From IMG/VR virus record IMGVR_UViG_3300032156_001598, positions 1 to 20,821 of that record: a stretch of 20,821 nucleotides of DNA; one strand, written 5' to 3'. The translations under genes and the position numbers were made by a program. This document shows positions 742-20,542 of the stretch, in pieces (within the stretch, counting starts at the first letter, position 1; every line of letters begins with the position of its first letter). A model generated the notes under the pieces. The model saw only the letters and a list, made by a program, of their open reading frames with translations. It was not told the origin of the DNA and made no database searches. The stretch is from a virus.

Positions 742-1199
742 TGGAATATTTTTTTGACGATAAAGAAAAACAGAGAGAGTTGAAAAAGATACTGGATAGT
801 TGGATCGACCCCCCCACTCCCTTCCGGCACCAGTGTGGTGTGAAAGGCCTTGGATGCGATTGCGCCTATTTTGTGGCAAGAGTTTTTGAAGAGATTGGCG
901 TCTTGCAATGGAGAAAGAATCTAATGCCTGACTATCCGAAGGACTGGCATCTTCACAACACGAGGGAGTTGCTGAAAGAAACGATCGAGAAAGAATTTAG
1001 GTGCGAGAGCATCGGGTTTGAATCCTTTCTTAATGGAGACATGGTTCTTCTTCACTATAGGAAGGCGGCCTCACACGTTGGGATATTTTTTGATGGCCAT
1101 TTATATCAGGCGATTGAGATGGTTGGGGTATGTCGAGCCTCTGCTCAGGAGAAAGGTCTGAGAAAACGGATGCGGTTCGCTTATCGAATTTTAGTGTGA
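741..1199 (+). CDS. NlpC/P60-family phage tail peptidase
   Basis: A predicted cysteine peptidase of about 152 residues, of the kind phage tail tips carry to open peptidoglycan during DNA entry. The nucleophile lies in GLGCDCAYFV (the second Cys of the pair, in the family DC motif) and the catalytic His in ASHVGIFFDG. The NGDMVLLHY segment matches the usual GD-x-V strand before the His. The length is normal for the phage NlpC family. A GTG at 738 directly precedes the ATG at 741; I prefer the ATG, which overlaps the upstream TGA by one base. The order BR0599 protein, NlpC peptidase, tail hub is conserved in many siphophages and GTAs. Here an endonuclease gene separates the peptidase from the hub. 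Confidence 0.85.
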   Translation: MEYFFDDKEKQRELKKILDSWIDPPTPFRHQCGVKGLGCDCAYFVARVFEEIGVLQWRKNLMPDYPKDWHLHNTRELLKETIEKEFRCESIGFESFLNGDMVLLHYRKAASHVGIFFDGHLYQAIEMVGVCRASAQEKGLRKRMRFAYRILV

Positions 1200-1213
1200 T
1201 TTTTGGGGATTGT

Positions 1214-1741
1214 ATGAAAGAATTATGTTTGAAAGGCAAATATTCAAATTTTACCACTAAACTTGATGATGTTTGGTTTGATTTCTTTAAAGATTGGAAT
1301 ATAACTGGGTTGGCCGGAAAAACAGGTATTATTTATGCTTGGGGACGTCCTAAGCATGCTCCCTTTGACACCCCATCTCGATATCTCCATCGTATCATTT
1401 TAAATGCTCCTAAAGGTATCTTCACCGATCACAAAGACCGGAATGGTTTAAACAATCAAGAAGATAATCTTCGTCTTTGTACTAATCGTCAAAACCAATT
1501 GAATTCTAAGAAACGTATGGGAACTTCTTCTCGTTTCAGAAATGTTTGCTTTAACTATAAAAATCACAGATGGCAGGCTTCAGCAAAATTAAAGGAAAAA
1601 TTAATATATCTTGGATGTTTTGTAACTGAAGAGCAAGCCGCTATTGCTTATAATGATTTTGCAGTAGAAAACTATGATCCTGAATTTGTGATTTATAATC
1701 AAGTGGACTCTATATGTAATGAATTGGGGATATTAAAATGA
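1214..1741 (+). CDS. HNH-AP2 homing endonuclease
   Basis: A 175-residue freestanding homing endonuclease. An HNH core lies at residues about 57-90 (YLHRIILNA, then TDHKDRNGLNNQEDNLRLCT, giving the His, Asp-His and Asn positions). It is followed by an AP2-type DNA-binding domain at about 105-160 (SSRFRNVCFNYKNHRWQAS and LGCFVTEEQAAIAYNDFA). The open frame extends upstream to 1130 inside the peptidase gene, but the ATG at 1214 with GGGGA just before it is the sensible start. The TGA overlaps the ATG of the next gene at 1738. The octamer TTGGGGAT occurs at both 1203-1210 and 1724-1731, which may mark the insertion limits. Its likely role is selfish spread within phage genomes; target not determined. 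Confidence 0.85.
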   Translation: MKELCLKGKYSNFTTKLDDVWFDFFKDWNITGLAGKTGIIYAWGRPKHAPFDTPSRYLHRIILNAPKGIFTDHKDRNGLNNQEDNLRLCTNRQNQLNSKKRMGTSSRFRNVCFNYKNHRWQASAKLKEKLIYLGCFVTEEQAAIAYNDFAVENYDPEFVIYNQVDSICNELGILK

Positions 1742-5341: not shown

Positions 5342-5548
5342 ATGACCACAGTCGCTCCCCGTACGGGAGCGTGGATTGAAACTATAATATTTAACTCCCA
5401 TGTTGATCATATCATACCCTTAAGCAAAGGAGGATTACATCATCCTGATAATCTTCAGATACTTGATGGAAAATTAAATGACTCAAAGAAAGATAAGTGG
5501 CCTTTATCAGAAGAAGAAAACAAAAGATACAAAGGGTTAAGACTCTAA
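5342..5548 (+). CDS. Short HNH nuclease ORF whose N-terminus is a CRISPR repeat
   Basis: A 68-codon ORF with a good Shine-Dalgarno (CGGAGGAGCAAG) before ATG 5342. Codons 4-14 (VAPRTGAWIET) are simply the translation of the 32-bp CRISPR repeat at 5351-5382, so that part is probably not a protein domain. From residue 19 the sequence is an HNH core, HVDHIIPLSKGGLHHPDNLQ then ILDGKLNDSKKDKW, retaining Asp22-His23, Asn37 and Asn46. The upstream zinc-knuckle or strand half normally seen in phage HNH proteins is missing. It could be a decayed homing endonuclease truncated by arrival of the repeat, or a minimal ORF kept as an mRNA context for the repeat. The flanking starts look alike: this ORF begins MTT, and so does the next gene at 5565. 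Confidence 0.55.
   Translation: MTTVAPRTGAWIETIIFNSHVDHIIPLSKGGLHHPDNLQILDGKLNDSKKDKWPLSEEENKRYKGLRL
5351..5382 (+). CRISPR. Solitary type I-C CRISPR repeat unit (copy 1)
   Basis: A 32-bp sequence with the form of a type I-C repeat: GTC, stem CGCTCCC, loop CGTAC, stem GGGAGCG, then the 3' segment TGGATTGAAAC. No second repeat or spacer lies nearby, so this is not an array. It is sense to the late operon and lies within the first codons of the short HNH ORF. Known Cas5d (type I-C) processing cuts at the stem base after position 21. In this copy that would leave an 11-nt handle joined to downstream mRNA. A base-for-base identical copy is at 18939-18970 on the other strand. Confidence 0.88.
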
Positions 5549-9692: not shown

Positions 9693-10988
9693 ATGATTGT
9701 CTATAAAACATCTAATCTCGTTAACAGCAAGTCCTATATTGGGCAGGACTCCAATAATGATCCAGATTATTTAGGTTCAGGGAGATATTTAAGAAGTGCA
9801 ATCCAGCAACACGGAAGAAAAAACTTTAAAAAAGAAATAATAGCTTGGTGTGATACAAAGGATAAATTGAATTTTTTAGAGAGATTCTTCATTGATTTTT
9901 TCAAAACCAAAGTTCCAAATGGTTATAACATTAGCGACGGTGGAGATGGCGGTAATCTTGGATCATTGGTTAATGAAAAAATCCGTAAAGCTATGAGGGG
10001 AACTTCCTGGAATAAGGGGAATAAGGGAGGACATCTATCGTTGGAAACAAGAAAGAAAATGAGTGAACGAAAAAGAGGAATCCCCATGTCTCTTGAAGCA
10101 AGAGAAAAAATTAGTAAGGGATTGAAAGGTCGTAAAACTCCTTGGTTGATGGGAGATCTTAATCCGGCCAAACGTCCAGAAGTGAGGAAGAAATTAAGTG
10201 GTGAGAATAATGTAGCCAAACGTCCAGAGGTAAGAGAAAAAATTAGTGCGACCATGAAAGGAAGGCATTTATCTGAAGAGCATAAAAGAAATCTAAGTAT
10301 ATCTCGTAGAATGATCAAAGTTAGTGTGATTGGTTGGATGATTCTATTTTTATTTTCATCATTGGCGTCTTGCTCGGTGTCTGAAATTAACGCAGTCAGT
10401 AATCAGCCAGCGATAGAAGAGCAGATTATTGATAGTATTCATGATCCCAGAATCTCGTCGCTTGCTTACGGGTTGAAACGAGCAGTTCGAGCGGAGGTGA
10501 ACTACTACTGGGGCCTTGAGCAAAGAGCGACTGTTTTCTATTCTCAGATACATCAAGAGAGCGGTTGGAACCCAGATGCCAAGAGTCAATATGCTTCTGG
10601 CCTTGCTCAATTTACGCCAGATACGGCAAAGTGGATTTCAAAATTGTATCCGGTAGATTTAGGAGAGAACAATCCCCTTGACGCTCGATGGGCGATTAGA
10701 GCTTGCGTGAAGTATGATCGTTGGATATATGATAAGTTATCAGAGGTTTATCAGGAACGCCAACGGTGGGCTATGACCTTGAGTTCATATAATGGTGGTA
10801 AGGGATGGCTTGATCGAGATCGTAAGTTATGTTTTGATGCTCCTTGTTGTTGTGATCAAATGAAGTGGTTTGAGAATGTCGAGATGTTTTCCAATAGAGC
10901 AGCATGGGCTATCAAGGAAAATAGAGATTATGTTGTAAAGATTTTAGATAGATGGTCTCCCATGTATGAAAAAGCGGGGTTCATCTAA
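9693..10988 (+). CDS. In-frame fusion ORF: GIY-YIG homing endonuclease plus lytic transglycosylase
   Basis: Residues 1-206 are a GIY-YIG homing endonuclease: IVY (2-4) and YIG (15-17) give the signature, DPDYLGSG follows, and FLERFFIDFF carries the conserved Glu near residue 63. Then come NUMOD3-like DNA-binding repeats (LSLETRKKMSERKRG, MSLEAREKISKGLKG, RPEVREKISATMKG, LSEEHKRNL). No stop codon ends this part; the frame runs straight into the lysin at 10311. The fusion may be translated, but the lysin has its own internal starts and signal peptide, so separate translation is more likely. The insertion separates holin from lysin, genes that normally abut or overlap. The upstream site is weak (no clear Shine-Dalgarno before ATG 9693). 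Confidence 0.8.
   Translation: MIVYKTSNLVNSKSYIGQDSNNDPDYLGSGRYLRSAIQQHGRKNFKKEIIAWCDTKDKLNFLERFFIDFFKTKVPNGYNISDGGDGGNLGSLVNEKIRKAMRGTSWNKGNKGGHLSLETRKKMSERKRGIPMSLEAREKISKGLKGRKTPWLMGDLNPAKRPEVRKKLSGENNVAKRPEVREKISATMKGRHLSEEHKRNLSISRRMIKVSVIGWMILFLFSSLASCSVSEINAVSNQPAIEEQIIDSIHDPRISSLAYGLKRAVRAEVNYYWGLEQRATVFYSQIHQESGWNPDAKSQYASGLAQFTPDTAKWISKLYPVDLGENNPLDARWAIRACVKYDRWIYDKLSEVYQERQRWAMTLSSYNGGKGWLDRDRKLCFDAPCCCDQMKWFENVEMFSNRAAWAIKENRDYVVKILDRWSPMYEKAGFI
10338..10988 (+). CDS. Lytic transglycosylase endolysin with lipobox-like signal (internal start)
   Basis: This is the lysin portion of the fused ORF. It starts at ATG 10338 (MILFLFSSLASC) or ATG 10311 (MIKVSVIGW). FSSLASC is a good lipobox, so the mature enzyme may be a lipoprotein or signal-anchored. 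The SLT-like catalytic Glu is in SQIHQESGWNPDAKS, followed by YASGLAQFTPDTAKW and SSYNGGKGWLDRD, in the usual motif order of family 1 transglycosylases. The product would cleave peptidoglycan after holin action. The first codons overlap, in another frame, a relic of the holin 3' end, which implies that lysin and holin overlapped before the endonuclease arrived. No strong ribosome site is visible at either start. Confidence 0.8.
   Translation: MILFLFSSLASCSVSEINAVSNQPAIEEQIIDSIHDPRISSLAYGLKRAVRAEVNYYWGLEQRATVFYSQIHQESGWNPDAKSQYASGLAQFTPDTAKWISKLYPVDLGENNPLDARWAIRACVKYDRWIYDKLSEVYQERQRWAMTLSSYNGGKGWLDRDRKLCFDAPCCCDQMKWFENVEMFSNRAAWAIKENRDYVVKILDRWSPMYEKAGFI
10355..10384 (+). pseudogene. Relic duplicate of holin 3' end
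   Basis: Read in the frame starting at 10355, the bases encode FIIGVLLGV and a TGA stop, the same peptide as the holin C-terminus at 9655-9684 (which ends TAA). Of 30 aligned bases 23 match. All mismatches are at third codon positions except one in the stop codon, so the two are synonymous variants of the same gene end. In the current arrangement this copy only overlaps the lysin signal peptide in a different frame. Confidence 0.75.
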
Positions 10989-15267: not shown

Positions 15268-16308
15268 TTAGAAACCTGGATTTCTCCTGGCTTGCCCGCC
15301 GTTCGCCTTCTCTTTTGGGATCATCCCCTTTTTCTCCATCATTGCCTTTTCTTCTTCAGGGGAGGGAATGTCTTCGTCGGTTTCGGATTTTACCCCACCT
15401 TCCGGCACACCTTTCTTTTCCTCGAACAAGATTTCTCCCGTCGATATATTGATCACGTCTCCCTTATTGGCTTTGCTCTCAATTTCAGCCTGGACTATTC
15501 CAGCATCGGCGGTATCTTCCTGCTCTTCCACGAACCTGAAAGATGCGTTTACCTTCTCGGGATCTATCGGGATCTTTCCAGTCGCCCGGTTCACAATGGT
15601 CTTGTACTCCATCTGCTCTGGGTAGTCGTCCCAAAAAACTTTGCTCTGAGCCTTGGCCTTGGATTTATTGAAATCTGCTTCCGTGACGATGAAAAGACGG
15701 TTCTTCTTTGGATCTCCATAGACCATGTATGCGAATCCGCCAATGACTTTTCCACGATCGAAGGGTTTTGGTATTTCAAATTCGTAGGATTCAACAGGGT
15801 TTTTGAACGATGCCTTAGCCGGCTTAAAAACATCCTTTTCGTGAACGAGTTCATAGATAATATTTTCGGGAGGGTCAACGGCCATCTGCCGCCGATAGTA
15901 GTCCTTTCCGGCATATCCGATCCTCAGATCAAGATCGTATTTTTTCAGGCGGCTGTTAAAGTAGGGGATCGGAGAGATGTGATTCGGGATCAAGGCGTCC
16001 AACCCCAGTTCAATCCGGTGAATCGAATCGATAGCGAGCTTTTCAAGATTGATATTCGCCCATACAATCGGGAGTCCATCCTTGTCCTTTTCGGCCCTTT
16101 TCTTTTCCAGGTCTTTCAGGGATTGGTCAATCTTGATGAAAAGATGCTGAGCAAGACGGCGCTGATACGGAGACATATCAAGCTTTCCGACAGCACCCGA
16201 AAATTCTCTGATTATAATTGCGGTGAATCTTTCTGAAACCGACCCTTTATTCTCTGCGGGTAGATTTCTCTTTTCTTTCTTGCTTCCCTGTTCCACTTTC
16301 TGTTCCAT
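15268..16308 (-). CDS. recT: RecT-family single-strand annealing protein
   Basis: The start is ATG (complement of 16306-16308; MEQKVEQGSKKEKRN) with AAAAGGAGGCAATAAC upstream. The frame is open further upstream but without support. 346 residues: AIDSIHRIELGLDALIPNHI, SPIPYFNSRLKKYDLDLRIG YAGKDYYRR, SYEFEIPKPFDRGKVIGGFA YM and FWDDYPEQMEYKTIVNRATG match the RecT region and its conserved aromatic/acidic motifs. The last 80 residues are acidic and low complexity (typical variable tail). Function: annealing of single-stranded DNA for phage recombination, with the SbcC-like ATPase and MBL-fold protein encoded alongside. Its first 97 bases overlap the HNH homing endonuclease ORF. Confidence 0.85.
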   Translation of the reverse strand: MEQKVEQGSKKEKRNLPAENKGSVSERFTAIIIREFSGAVGKLDMSPYQRRLAQHLFIKIDQSLKDLEKKRAEKDKDGLPIVWANINLEKLAIDSIHRIELGLDALIPNHISPIPYFNSRLKKYDLDLRIGYAGKDYYRRQMAVDPPENIIYELVHEKDVFKPAKASFKNPVESYEFEIPKPFDRGKVIGGFAYMVYGDPKKNRLFIVTEADFNKSKAKAQSKVFWDDYPEQMEYKTIVNRATGKIPIDPEKVNASFRFVEEQEDTADAGIVQAEIESKANKGDVINISTGEILFEEKKGVPEGGVKSETDEDIPSPEEEKAMMEKKGMIPKEKANGGQARRNPGF

Positions 16309-16946
16309 GTTATTGCCTCCTTTTGAAATGCTTTTTCGATAGAATAGCCCTTTTGAAGTCTTGAATTGATAGTGGAATACTTTATTCCTAATTCTTTTGC
16401 CCAATCGGAAAGAATTTGAGTTCTTCCACCGTAAGTGATTTTTATTACTCTCCGATTATTTTTTCTTTGCTGGTTCCATGATATCCAGGTGCAATTTTCT
16501 GGTTCATAGTTTCTGTCGTTGTCAATCCGTTCAATCGTAAGCCCAGGAACATATCCCGCAGACATGGCCCAATCGTAAAATACCTTGAAGTCATCCCATG
16601 GAGCGAAGAAGGTTATTCCCCTGCCTCCATAGTCCTTAAACCCGCTGTCTCTTGGGTTTCTGCACCTTTGTTTTATTTGTGTCCATACATGATAGAGAGG
16701 GTTGACTTTTCCATTCGGAAGTTTTGAAAGACCATGTTTTAAATTAGTACGCTTGGTAAGTGCTTCTCTCGAAAGGCATCCGCAACTTTTGGTATGCCCA
16801 GTCCGAAGCGTATTGCTATTCCGAAGTGTCGTAACTCCACATTCACATTTACATTCCCAAAGTTTAACAGTGATAACCTTTTCAACCTGTTGAATTGCTG
16901 TCAATCTTCCAAACCGTTTTCCGGTTAGATCGATGAACTTAGGCAT
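16212..16946 (-). CDS. HNH homing endonuclease with zinc motif and NUMOD1-like tail
   Basis: 244 residues. N-terminal MPKFIDLTGKRFGRLTAIQQ and WECKCECG/SCGCL zinc motif (about 30-58); then the HNH-type region (YGGRGITFFAPWDDF, GLTIERIDNDRNYEPENCTW) and a NUMOD1-like HTH (RTQILSDWAKELGIKYSTIN, SRLQKGYSIEKAF). This is a common phage homing endonuclease form. The start overlaps the ATPase stop by eight bases and the last 97 bases overlap RecT in another frame, so it interrupts an ATPase-RecT operon. The AAGGAGGCAATAAC before RecT (16309-16322) is identical to the one before the ATPase (18913-18926). Confidence 0.85.
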   Translation of the reverse strand: MPKFIDLTGKRFGRLTAIQQVEKVITVKLWECKCECGVTTLRNSNTLRTGHTKSCGCLSREALTKRTNLKHGLSKLPNGKVNPLYHVWTQIKQRCRNPRDSGFKDYGGRGITFFAPWDDFKVFYDWAMSAGYVPGLTIERIDNDRNYEPENCTWISWNQQRKNNRRVIKITYGGRTQILSDWAKELGIKYSTINSRLQKGYSIEKAFQKEAITWNRKWNREARKKREIYPQRIKGRFQKDSPQL

Positions 16947-18938: not shown

Positions 18939-18970
18939 GTTTCAATCCACGCTCCCGTACGGGGAGCGAC
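18939..18970 (-). CRISPR. Solitary type I-C CRISPR repeat unit (copy 2)
   Basis: Exactly the reverse complement of the 32 bases at 5351-5382: GTC, stem CGCTCCC, loop CGTAC, stem GGGAGCG and 3' TGGATTGAAAC. It is on the minus strand, sense to the early operon, 29 bases before the ATPase ATG and about 60 bases beyond the end of the IsrB hairpin. No array. If cut by host Cas5d the ATPase mRNA would begin with the 11-nt handle followed by TTAGGAAAAGATAAGGAGGC. Confidence 0.88.
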
Positions 18971-19030
18971 TAAGAACCTCCCCCTCATTCCTATGGGGAT
19001 TGATTAATGGTTGCTGTATCATAAAATTTT

Positions 19031-19074
19031 ACGAGGCGGAAACCCCGTCAGTTTACTGCGGGGAAGAGCCTCGT
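19031..19074 (-). repeat. Imperfect palindrome at IsrB 3' end (RE-like hairpin)
   Basis: Outer arms ACGAGGC (19031-19037) and GCCTCGT (19068-19074), inner arms CCCCG and CGGGG, then CAGT-ACTG, around the IsrB stop codon. A long branched hairpin of this type marks element ends in the IS200/IS605 superfamily. Confidence 0.7.
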
Positions 19075-20064
19075 CCTCCAAGAATTAAATGCCAGAAATC
19101 GGCAATCTTCTGGAATAGCATTCTGGCACAGCCGTTGACCATCGGTTAAAGAGTGTAGGCTAATCCGGTTTCTTGATGTTCCACCCACATAGGACAATCC
19201 CCAGGTTGGATGTTTTATCAAACTTCCACGTTTAAATCCAAGGCTTCTACTTCCACCATATGGCTTCCTAACTCCCCCGTTTGCGGGCTGAAGCATATGA
19301 AGTTGCCTTCTGTGAAATCTCAATGGGGTGATTAAAAGCATTTCCTTGTTATCGGGAATAATGTGACCGCCAACCCATGAATTCGCTAACACCCAACTAT
19401 CGACACAGTGGGCCTCAAAGGTCTCTGCCATCTTGCTCCCACTTTTTTTCAGACCTACGGTATCCCTCAATTCTTTCGTTTCAAATCCTTGTTTTGTTTC
19501 TACCCTTCCGATCTTTTTTAGTTCTTCGTAAAACCATTTTTTTCCTACCTCAAGCGGAGAAAATGATTTATCCCATCTTCTCTTTCCGGTCGTCCTGGCC
19601 TTGATGTCTTCAACAACAAACGAATCAATCGGGAGCATTTTTGTGATCCAATGACAAATCCTTAACTTCCATCCCCACCTTGCCTTTGTTGACGGAGGCA
19701 GTCCGCCCTTGGCTAAATTAAATCTTGGTTTTCTGCATGGGGTAGTTCTGAATCTTCTTGCTTTCCGCATTTCCCGTCTTGTCTTGACCGCATCTTTAAC
19801 CCAAGTCACTGCATCACTCTGAATATTAAGAAATGTATGGGCCTCAGACTTAACGGTGAATCCCTCTTTTTTACTTCCAGGATCAACCCCAACGGTTACA
19901 GATTGAATAACTCTTGCCGACGGTTCTATGTTCAAACGAACACAGAATATTCCCCTTTTCCAAAACGGAGTAGCTTTCCCGGATTTAACCCAGGTGGCCG
20001 CCCTGTTTGGGGTGGTCGCCATCAAGGGTTTCTGATTTAAATCTACTACGGGTACGAATAACAT
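19048..20064 (-). CDS. isrB: IsrB RNA-guided RuvC nuclease
   Basis: 338 residues. The N-terminal PLMP-like domain (VDLNQKPLMATTPNRAATWV) is characteristic of IscB/IsrB. RuvC-I GVDPGSKKEG has Asp61; an Arg-rich bridge-helix region (KTRREMRKARRFRTTPCRK) follows; RuvC-II FVVEDIKA has Glu152; RuvC-III AHCVDSWVLA has His219 and Asp222. Only about 67 residues separate RuvC-II from RuvC-III, with no HNH motif, so this is IsrB rather than IscB. IsrB nicks the non-target DNA strand under guidance of omegaRNA. The conserved C-terminal part (RRQLHMLQPANGGVRKPYGG, KRGSLIKHPTWGLSYVGGTS) matches the family. GGAGGTCTTACAGACT precedes the ATG. All RuvC acids are present, so it may be active. Confidence 0.88.
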   Translation of the reverse strand: MLFVPVVDLNQKPLMATTPNRAATWVKSGKATPFWKRGIFCVRLNIEPSARVIQSVTVGVDPGSKKEGFTVKSEAHTFLNIQSDAVTWVKDAVKTRREMRKARRFRTTPCRKPRFNLAKGGLPPSTKARWGWKLRICHWITKMLPIDSFVVEDIKARTTGKRRWDKSFSPLEVGKKWFYEELKKIGRVETKQGFETKELRDTVGLKKSGSKMAETFEAHCVDSWVLANSWVGGHIIPDNKEMLLITPLRFHRRQLHMLQPANGGVRKPYGGSRSLGFKRGSLIKHPTWGLSYVGGTSRNRISLHSLTDGQRLCQNAIPEDCRFLAFNSWRTRLFPAVN

Positions 20065-20281
20065 AGTCTGTAAGACCTCCTATATACGGCCCTTCCACAC
20101 TGACTGACGGAGAGGTTGAAAATTAGGGGCGGCGTTCTCAACATCCTTTGGCCTGCCACGGCCAGCCAGTTCAGCAAAAACTGTGTAGTCAATTTTTTAG
20201 TCTCTCTGGTCCCGATTGGCCTTCGGTTCCTTCAAGCCCCGTCCCTTTAGGGCAGGGTAGTTGACTGGGGATCTCCTTTTC
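20065..20281 (-). ncRNA. omegaRNA (HEARO) of IsrB with 5' guide
   Basis: Directly upstream of IsrB, as in IscB/IsrB loci. In the minus strand GTCAACTA is followed by a stem CCCTGCCC, loop TAAA, GGGACGGGG and GGGGCTTG, the typical HEARO 5' scaffold. GTCAA (20261-20265) pairs with TTGAC (20188-20192), closing the first domain, and GC-rich stems follow (CTGGCTGGCC/GGCAGGCC near 20150-20170). The guide would be the 16 or so bases just before GTCAA (20266-20281), ending GGAGATCCCCA, taken from the flanking gene. Total scaffold about 200 nt. Class call is firm by position and structure; the exact 5' end is not. Confidence 0.75.
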
Positions 20282-20542
20282 CAGGGGTTTGGCTTTTCCT
20301 GGGGGTTTGCATTCCTTGTGGTATTTTATCCCATCCTTGGTTTTGTTTTTCTCATCGGGCAGGATGAAGGTTTTGCATCTGCCACATTTCCAGACCTCTT
20401 GTTTGGCTCTGTTCTGCCATTCAAACGTATCATCGATGATCACGACATGAGAGACCCGGACATCGAGAGTAGAATAAACAGCTATCTTTCCATTAGTCAT
20501 TATCTCTGGAATTGCGGAGCGAAGTGCGTAGGCTTTTTCCAT
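20189..20542 (-). CDS. Small CxxC protein, 3' end altered by the IsrB insertion
   Basis: The ORF begins MEKAYALRSAIPEIMTNGKI AVYST and carries one zinc-ribbon-like WKCGRCKTFILPDE...YHKECKPPGK motif. The real coding sequence probably ends near residue 92 (EKEIP). The last 25 codons (SQLPCPKGTGLEGTEGQSGP onward) are read-through of the omegaRNA scaffold. The element therefore sits in this gene's 3' end. Possibly a small phage zinc protein of early operons; family not recognised. A GGGAGA lies upstream of the ATG. Confidence 0.55.
   Translation of the reverse strand: MEKAYALRSAIPEIMTNGKIAVYSTLDVRVSHVVIIDDTFEWQNRAKQEVWKCGRCKTFILPDEKNKTKDGIKYHKECKPPGKAKPLEKEIPSQLPCPKGTGLEGTEGQSGPERLKN

What the first reader, a model, noticed from the sequence alone, without database searches (positions are those of the whole stretch)
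19031..20281. Complete-looking IsrB with omegaRNA in a phage early operon
The locus has an IsrB-type protein with all RuvC acids, an Arg-rich bridge region, no HNH, an upstream HEARO-like scaffold with closing helix GTCAA/TTGAC, and a terminal hairpin. IsrB elements are known mainly from bacterial chromosomes; one within a phage recombination operon raises the possibility of use in phage-phage competition or in regulation rather than simple transposon maintenance.
Basis: partly seen in the sequence, partly recalled or inferred. Interest (0 to 1): 0.78.

Follow-up and report, generated by a model that had tools for sequence, protein, structure and literature searches.

The report
Phage-borne IsrB nickase with guide RNA
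A bacterial virus carries a small mobile element that encodes an RNA-guided DNA-nicking protein (IsrB, a relative of the ancestor of Cas9) together with its guide RNA, inserted just in front of a gene's start codon; it is real and looks intact, but viral members of this family were already known.

Summary
The ORF at 19048-20064(-) is a full-length IsrB: it matches DtIsrB along its whole length, keeps all RuvC, bridge-helix and TAM-reading residues, and has no HNH. Upstream lies an omegaRNA scaffold. Rfam HEARO matches it only weakly (27.2 bits, gathering score 83), but a covariance model built from 40 relatives without the window finds it at 82.1 bits (E about 3e-18), with strong covariation and a conserved pseudoknot. 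The element runs from about 20265 to 19023. Both ends fold into the same imperfect palindrome, the outer left flank is the guide (20285-20266), and the right flank begins ATGA, a known IsrB TAM. Joined flanks would give a good ribosome-binding site plus start codon; other viral copies also tend to sit at start codons. Best reading: a non-autonomous IS200/IS605-type element whose nickase targets its own empty insertion site (homing or retention). The premise that IsrB is mainly chromosomal is outdated: 25 viral relatives were found here, K2IsrB came from a viral metagenome, and over 16% of HEARO/IscB contigs were reported as viral. Nothing here shows phage-phage competition or regulation. In passing: two identical solitary type I-C CRISPR repeats, candidate RNA anti-CRISPRs.

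The parts
19048..20064 (-). isrB ORF, 338 aa: PLMP/RRXRR domain, split RuvC (D61, E152, H219/D222), Arg-rich bridge region, TAM-interacting C-terminus (R311, Q314); no HNH
20064..20265 (-). omegaRNA (HEARO-like) scaffold forming the 5' leader of isrB
20089..20174 (-). Conserved 3' domain of the omegaRNA: three helices plus pseudoknot between the apical loop and the stretch before the ORF
   Evidence: covariation; model hit
20266..20285 (-). Inferred 20-nt native guide (CCTGGAAAAGGAGATCCCCA), flanking DNA outside the element; contains a Shine-Dalgarno-like AAGGAG
   Evidence: guide length taken from DtIsrB (PMC9581776)
20237..20257 (-). 5'-end imperfect palindrome with bulged A (CCCUGCCC-UAAA-GGG-A-CGGGG)
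19031..19074 (-). 3'-end imperfect palindrome of the same shape as the 5' end (CCCCGCAG-UAAA-CUG-A-CGGGG), nested in an outer stem, overlapping the isrB stop
   Evidence: z=-3.6
19019..19022 (-). ATGA at the inferred right boundary: TAM of the empty site and start codon of a 26-aa ORF remnant
20266..20542 (-). Upstream phage ORF of unknown function whose 3' end is replaced by the element

Best explanation
This is an intact-looking IsrB-omegaRNA element of about 1.24 kb, a non-autonomous IS200/IS605-type mobile element (no TnpA seen in the contig, presumably moved by a TnpA in trans), inserted in front of an ATGA start codon in a temperate phage's recombination operon. Inferred function: the omegaRNA is made as the 5' leader of the isrB message and carries the 20 nt of phage DNA outside the left end as its guide. 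IsrB with this RNA nicks DNA that still has the uninterrupted site (guide followed by ATGA), such as a related phage without the element or a chromosome from which it has just excised. Repair or replication through the nick, helped by the phage's own RecT/SbcC-like genes, copies the element into that site. Its own locus is spared because the guide is followed by GTCA, not NTGA. Shown here: protein family, RNA family, ends, flank pattern. Inferred: guide use, nicking, homing.
For: Protein and fold are IsrB. The omegaRNA model built without the window hits at E=2.8e-18; 20 of 26 pairs have changes on both sides, pseudoknot included, and 96.4% of cells pair. TAM-reading residues R323/Q326 of DtIsrB correspond to R311/Q314 (PMC9581776). 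The right-end motif GTTTC[CT] is followed about 20 nt later by ATGA in 11 of 12 viral loci that have it, by ATGG in the other. Both ends fold into the same bulged palindrome, as expected for Y1-transposase ends. In the window the joined flanks give AAGGAG followed closely by ATG. In L012 the element's 3' end repeats the guide flank next to ATGG (GAGGCCGACCG|ATGG against GAGCCGACCG|GTCAAC), as if the original junction had been partly restored. The guide with NTG occurs nowhere else in the window. Phages lacking IsrB have the gene that follows IsrB in L014/L022. A lab-observed IsrB insertion into phage Mic1 occurred at ATGA with 207 bp upstream and 59 bp downstream (PMC11237433).
Against: No empty site identical to this guide was found: the one exact viral match is a chance hit inside an unrelated gene. 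No TnpA seen in the window, and clear TnpA in only 2 of 20 related viral records. Expression, processing and nicking are untested. IsrB nicks one strand, and I know of no demonstration of nick-driven homing by IsrB. The ORF after the element is only 26 aa here, so the right flank may have been rearranged.
Confidence: 0.62

Rival explanations
1. Plain passenger: the element was inserted by a TnpA in trans, and IsrB only promotes retention at the donor site after transposition, with no role in spread between phages.
For: Same anatomy and palindromic ends; the general view for OMEGA nucleases; TnpA present elsewhere in two related records.
Against: Viral and cellular copies are mixed over the tree with at least 6 forced changes, showing frequent spread, which retention alone does not explain.
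Confidence: 0.22
2. Phage-phage competition or regulation: the RNP is retained because it nicks or represses the translation-start region of the matching gene in competing phages or in the host.
For: The native guide covers a ribosome-binding site and the TAM is a start codon; viral copies are enriched at gene starts, 7 of 15 against 9.8% background, p=3e-4.
Against: Start-codon placement is equally explained by survival of non-disruptive insertions and by the TAM itself being ATGA; no target phage found; no signs of a dedicated regulatory gene.
Confidence: 0.12
3. Decayed element: IsrB or its RNA is no longer active.
For: The closing pseudoknot has one extra G and one lost pair relative to relatives; the 26-aa ORF after the element suggests a rearranged right flank.
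Against: Open reading frame with every invariant residue retained, strong RNA model score, intact ends.
Confidence: 0.04

Closest known systems
DtIsrB (Desulfovirgula thermocuniculi, PDB 8dmb)
   Same: Domain order, RuvC residues, TAM readers R/Q, size, upstream omegaRNA, NTGA-type TAM
   Different: About 27% identity; a 284-nt omegaRNA including guide (here about 222 nt); its pseudoknots are of group B, whereas the pseudoknot found here (hairpin loop with the stretch before the ORF) resembles the SL5 pseudoknot described for group A
K2IsrB (viral metagenome contig k249_576930, PMC9581776)
   Same: IsrB from viral sequence, probably the same omegaRNA group (A), active in vitro with an NTG TAM
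   Different: Sequence not available here, so identity not measured
Microcystis IsrB orf2067 inserted into phage Mic1 gp49 (PMC11237433)
   Same: IsrB element entering a phage at ATGA with similar upstream length (207 bp up, 59 bp down)
   Different: There it disrupted a tnpB-like gene; here it sits in front of a start codon
IscB (OgeuIscB, TbaIscB) and HEARO nucleases
   Same: PLMP domain, RuvC, bridge helix, 5'-leader guide RNA
   Different: They have an HNH domain and cut both strands; this protein lacks HNH and is below the NCBIfam IscB cut-off (94.7 against 175 bits)

Membership tests
IsrB | N-terminal PLMP/RRXRR domain | tested here: met
   Pfam RRXRR E=2.4e-29; PLMA in place of PLMP, aligned with DtIsrB
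IsrB | RuvC I-III catalytic residues and Arg-rich bridge helix | tested here: met
   D61, E152, H219, D222, R100, R103, R104, R106 invariant in 13 sequences; bridge stretch has low pLDDT in the model
IsrB | No HNH domain, about 350 aa | tested here: met
   338 aa; no HNH in Pfam or NCBIfam scans; best fold DtIsrB
IsrB | Groups with IsrB rather than IscB | tested here: met
   Full-length match to DtIsrB only, IscB matches mostly cover the N-terminal third to half; in the tree a Staphylococcus phage IscB-like protein falls outside (midpoint root, long branches)
IsrB | Structured omegaRNA directly upstream | tested here: met
IsrB | Guide at the left end, NTGA TAM at the right junction | tested here: met
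   ATGA at the inferred right end; same in most viral relatives; anatomy only, no exact empty site
IsrB | RNA-guided nicking of the non-target strand | not testable with these tools
   needs biochemistry
Rfam HEARO (RF02033) | Score above the curated gathering threshold | tested here: not met
   27.2 bits against 83, E=0.0035 in 1.9 kb; 18 relatives also below threshold
IscB (NF040563) | Score above NCBIfam cut-off, HNH present | tested here: not met
   94.7 against 175 bits; no HNH
Autonomous IS200/IS605 element | TnpA (Y1) transposase in cis | tested here: not met
   No TnpA ORF inside the element; the rest of the window was not searched with the Y1 profile; 2 of 20 related viral records over the cut-off, not next to isrB
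Non-autonomous IS200/IS605-type element | Imperfect palindromes at both ends | tested here: met
   same bulged hairpin at both ends

The most novel reading that the evidence does not exclude
Phages keep IsrB elements at gene starts as a standing RNA-guided weapon or switch: the native guide is the ribosome-binding site of a phage gene and the TAM is its start codon, so the RNP binds and nicks exactly the translation start of that gene in sibling phages that lack the element, giving marker exclusion or repression as well as homing.
Probability: 0.12. Interest if true: 0.72.

Novelty: new member of a known kind. Interest (0 to 1): 0.4.

Why it matters
It adds a complete viral IsrB with inferred guide, TAM and both ends in one locus, and shows that this IsrB branch moves repeatedly between viruses and cells. 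The start-codon placement of viral copies makes a concrete homing or exclusion test possible: the natural target can be written down from the flanks.

Tried and rejected
Rfam HEARO at its curated cut-off: no match in the window or relatives, so a family model was built instead. Empty site for this exact guide: one exact viral match (L143), inside an unrelated phage gene with TTGC after the guide, rejected as chance. Relatives of the upstream ORF: none by peptide patterns; SbcC-like: one viral contig at 36%. Near-identical phages in INPHARED: none. Free-energy folding of the whole 202-nt leader is not better than shuffles (z=-0.88), so the RNA claim rests on covariation, not energy. The first count of start-codon placement (17 of 19 by ORF length) was replaced by the stricter 7 of 15 against a background of 84 of 858, since internal ATGs also open long frames. 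Spacers of two type I-C arrays with a 1-mismatch repeat do not match the window. BFVD fold search gave only RuvC-type hits at the top.

Full report
What was checked. The window is a whole 20,821-base virus record, possibly a fragment of a larger genome, with tail genes on the plus strand, an integrase, and a minus-strand operon of metallo-hydrolase, RecT, SbcC-like ATPase, the isrB ORF and an upstream ORF. The gene order SbcC-like, RecT, metallo-hydrolase recurs in Aeribacillus phage AP45. No near-identical phage is in the INPHARED collection.

Protein. The 338-aa ORF at 19048-20064(-) matches DtIsrB along its length (phmmer E=1.2e-31), has the RRXRR/PLMP domain (E=2.4e-29) and no HNH, and scores below the IscB cut-off. 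In 13 aligned relatives the RuvC residues D61, E152, H219, D222 and the bridge arginines are invariant. DtIsrB reads its TAM through R323 and Q326 (PMC9581776); the alignment puts window R311 and Q314 there. The AlphaFold2 model finds DtIsrB first among PDB entries (E=1.9e-24, TM 0.74/0.76).

RNA. Rfam HEARO aligns over its full length at 20265-20082(-) but weakly (27.2 bits, gathering 83, E=0.0035). That is not proof, and relatives do not reach the threshold either. The 3' domains of 40 relatives, viral and cellular, were therefore aligned without the window. A structure written by eye on that alignment has 26 pairs; 96.4% of cells pair, 20 pairs change on both sides, 220 cells do so against 56.5 in shuffles, and sliding the partners destroys the signal. 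One of the four helices is a pseudoknot between an apical loop and the stretch just before the ORF. This resembles the SL5 pseudoknot described for group A omegaRNAs such as that of K2IsrB (PMC9581776); the assignment is my inference. A covariance model from these rows finds the window at 20174-20089(-), 82.1 bits, E=2.8e-18. It also finds five relatives left out of the model, and nothing in seven other loci that do not hold an isrB leader.

Ends, guide and TAM. Most relatives share GTCAAC or a close variant at the left end, and many share GTTTCC at the right end, followed about 20 nt later by ATGA. In the window this places the element at about 20265-19023(-). Its two ends fold into the same bulged palindrome, as known for IS200/IS605 ends (from general knowledge of Y1 transposases). 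The left flank, the presumed guide, is CCTGGAAAAGGAGATCCCCA and the right flank starts ATGA; joined, they put AAGGAG at Shine-Dalgarno distance from an ATG. In L012 the element's 3' end repeats the guide flank in front of ATGG, which suggests that guide and start codon were contiguous before insertion. A stricter test of gene-start placement gave 7 of 15 viral loci against 84 of 858 background ATG[AG] sites, p=3e-4. In genomes related to L014 and L022, the gene that follows IsrB is present without IsrB, and in L135 it directly follows the homologue of L022's upstream gene. The left boundary in L022 is uncertain, because its upstream frame runs open into the following gene when the flanks are joined.

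Distribution. Twenty-five IMG/VR contigs and 267 matching stretches in bacterial and archaeal genomes, of which 80 were kept, mostly cyanobacterial and Chloroflexota, encode relatives; plasmids carry some too. In the tree, viral and cellular rows are mixed, with at least 6 forced changes. Some cellular rows come from short metagenomic contigs that could themselves be viral. The placement of outgroups rests on long branches. TnpA is clear in only 2 of 20 related viral records.

Function. The element is best read as a mobile element whose nickase acts on its own empty site. Protein family, RNA family, ends and flank pattern are shown; guide use, nicking and homing are inferred. Competition with other phages or regulation remains possible, because the guide covers a ribosome-binding site, but start-codon placement is also what survival of harmless insertions at an ATGA site would give.

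Novelty. Viral IsrB was already known: K2IsrB from a viral metagenome, IsrB in phage Mic1, an RRXRR-domain protein annotated in Microcystis phage LMM01, and a published survey calling over 16% of HEARO/IscB contigs viral. This is a new, well-preserved member.

Noticed in passing
window 18939-18970 (-) and 5351-5382 (+): Two identical solitary copies (34 identical bases, inverted, 13.5 kb apart) of GTCGCTCCCCGTACGGGAGCGTGGATTGAAAC, a type I-C CRISPR repeat, each in the sense of transcription; one lies between isrB and the sbcC-like gene, close upstream of its start codon. Matches at 90.6% an array next to cas2 on D. vulgaris pDVUL01 and at 90.3% a site beside cas7c/cas8c on a Lysinibacillus plasmid; two genomes in the phylum of the L028 genome (Thermodesulfobacteriota) have arrays one mismatch away. 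Candidate RNA anti-CRISPRs like RacrIC1 (PMC10651486)..
   Followed up: partly
window 5342-5548 (+): Short ORF that begins ATGACCACA, runs in frame through the CRISPR repeat (VAPRTGAWIET) and continues into an HNH-like fragment (HVDHIIPLSKGG), between two tail-region genes; looks like an inserted composite.
   Followed up: no
window 9693-10988 (+): GIY-YIG/NUMOD3 homing-endonuclease-like N-terminus fused in frame to an SLT transglycosylase; the latter seems to have its own start (MIKVSVIGW...) with a lipoprotein-like signal.
   Followed up: no
window 1130-1741 (+) and 16212-16946 (-): Further homing-endonuclease-like ORFs (HNH_3 in the first; no Pfam match in the second, resemblance from reading only). 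The first ends in an ATGA that overlaps the next gene's start, the same kind of junction as the IsrB element.
   Followed up: no
window 19022-18942 (-): The ORF that starts at the ATGA after the IsrB element (MIQQPLINPHRNEGEVL...) is only 26 aa and ends inside the CRISPR repeat, so the gene behind the element seems broken or replaced.
   Followed up: partly
L018, L021, L025, L004, L012: Element 3' ends directly before the downstream start codon carry strong Shine-Dalgarno-like stretches (dG -7.6 to -9.8), whereas several copies with the full right-end hairpin do not, as if some copies now supply a ribosome-binding site to the next gene.
   Followed up: no
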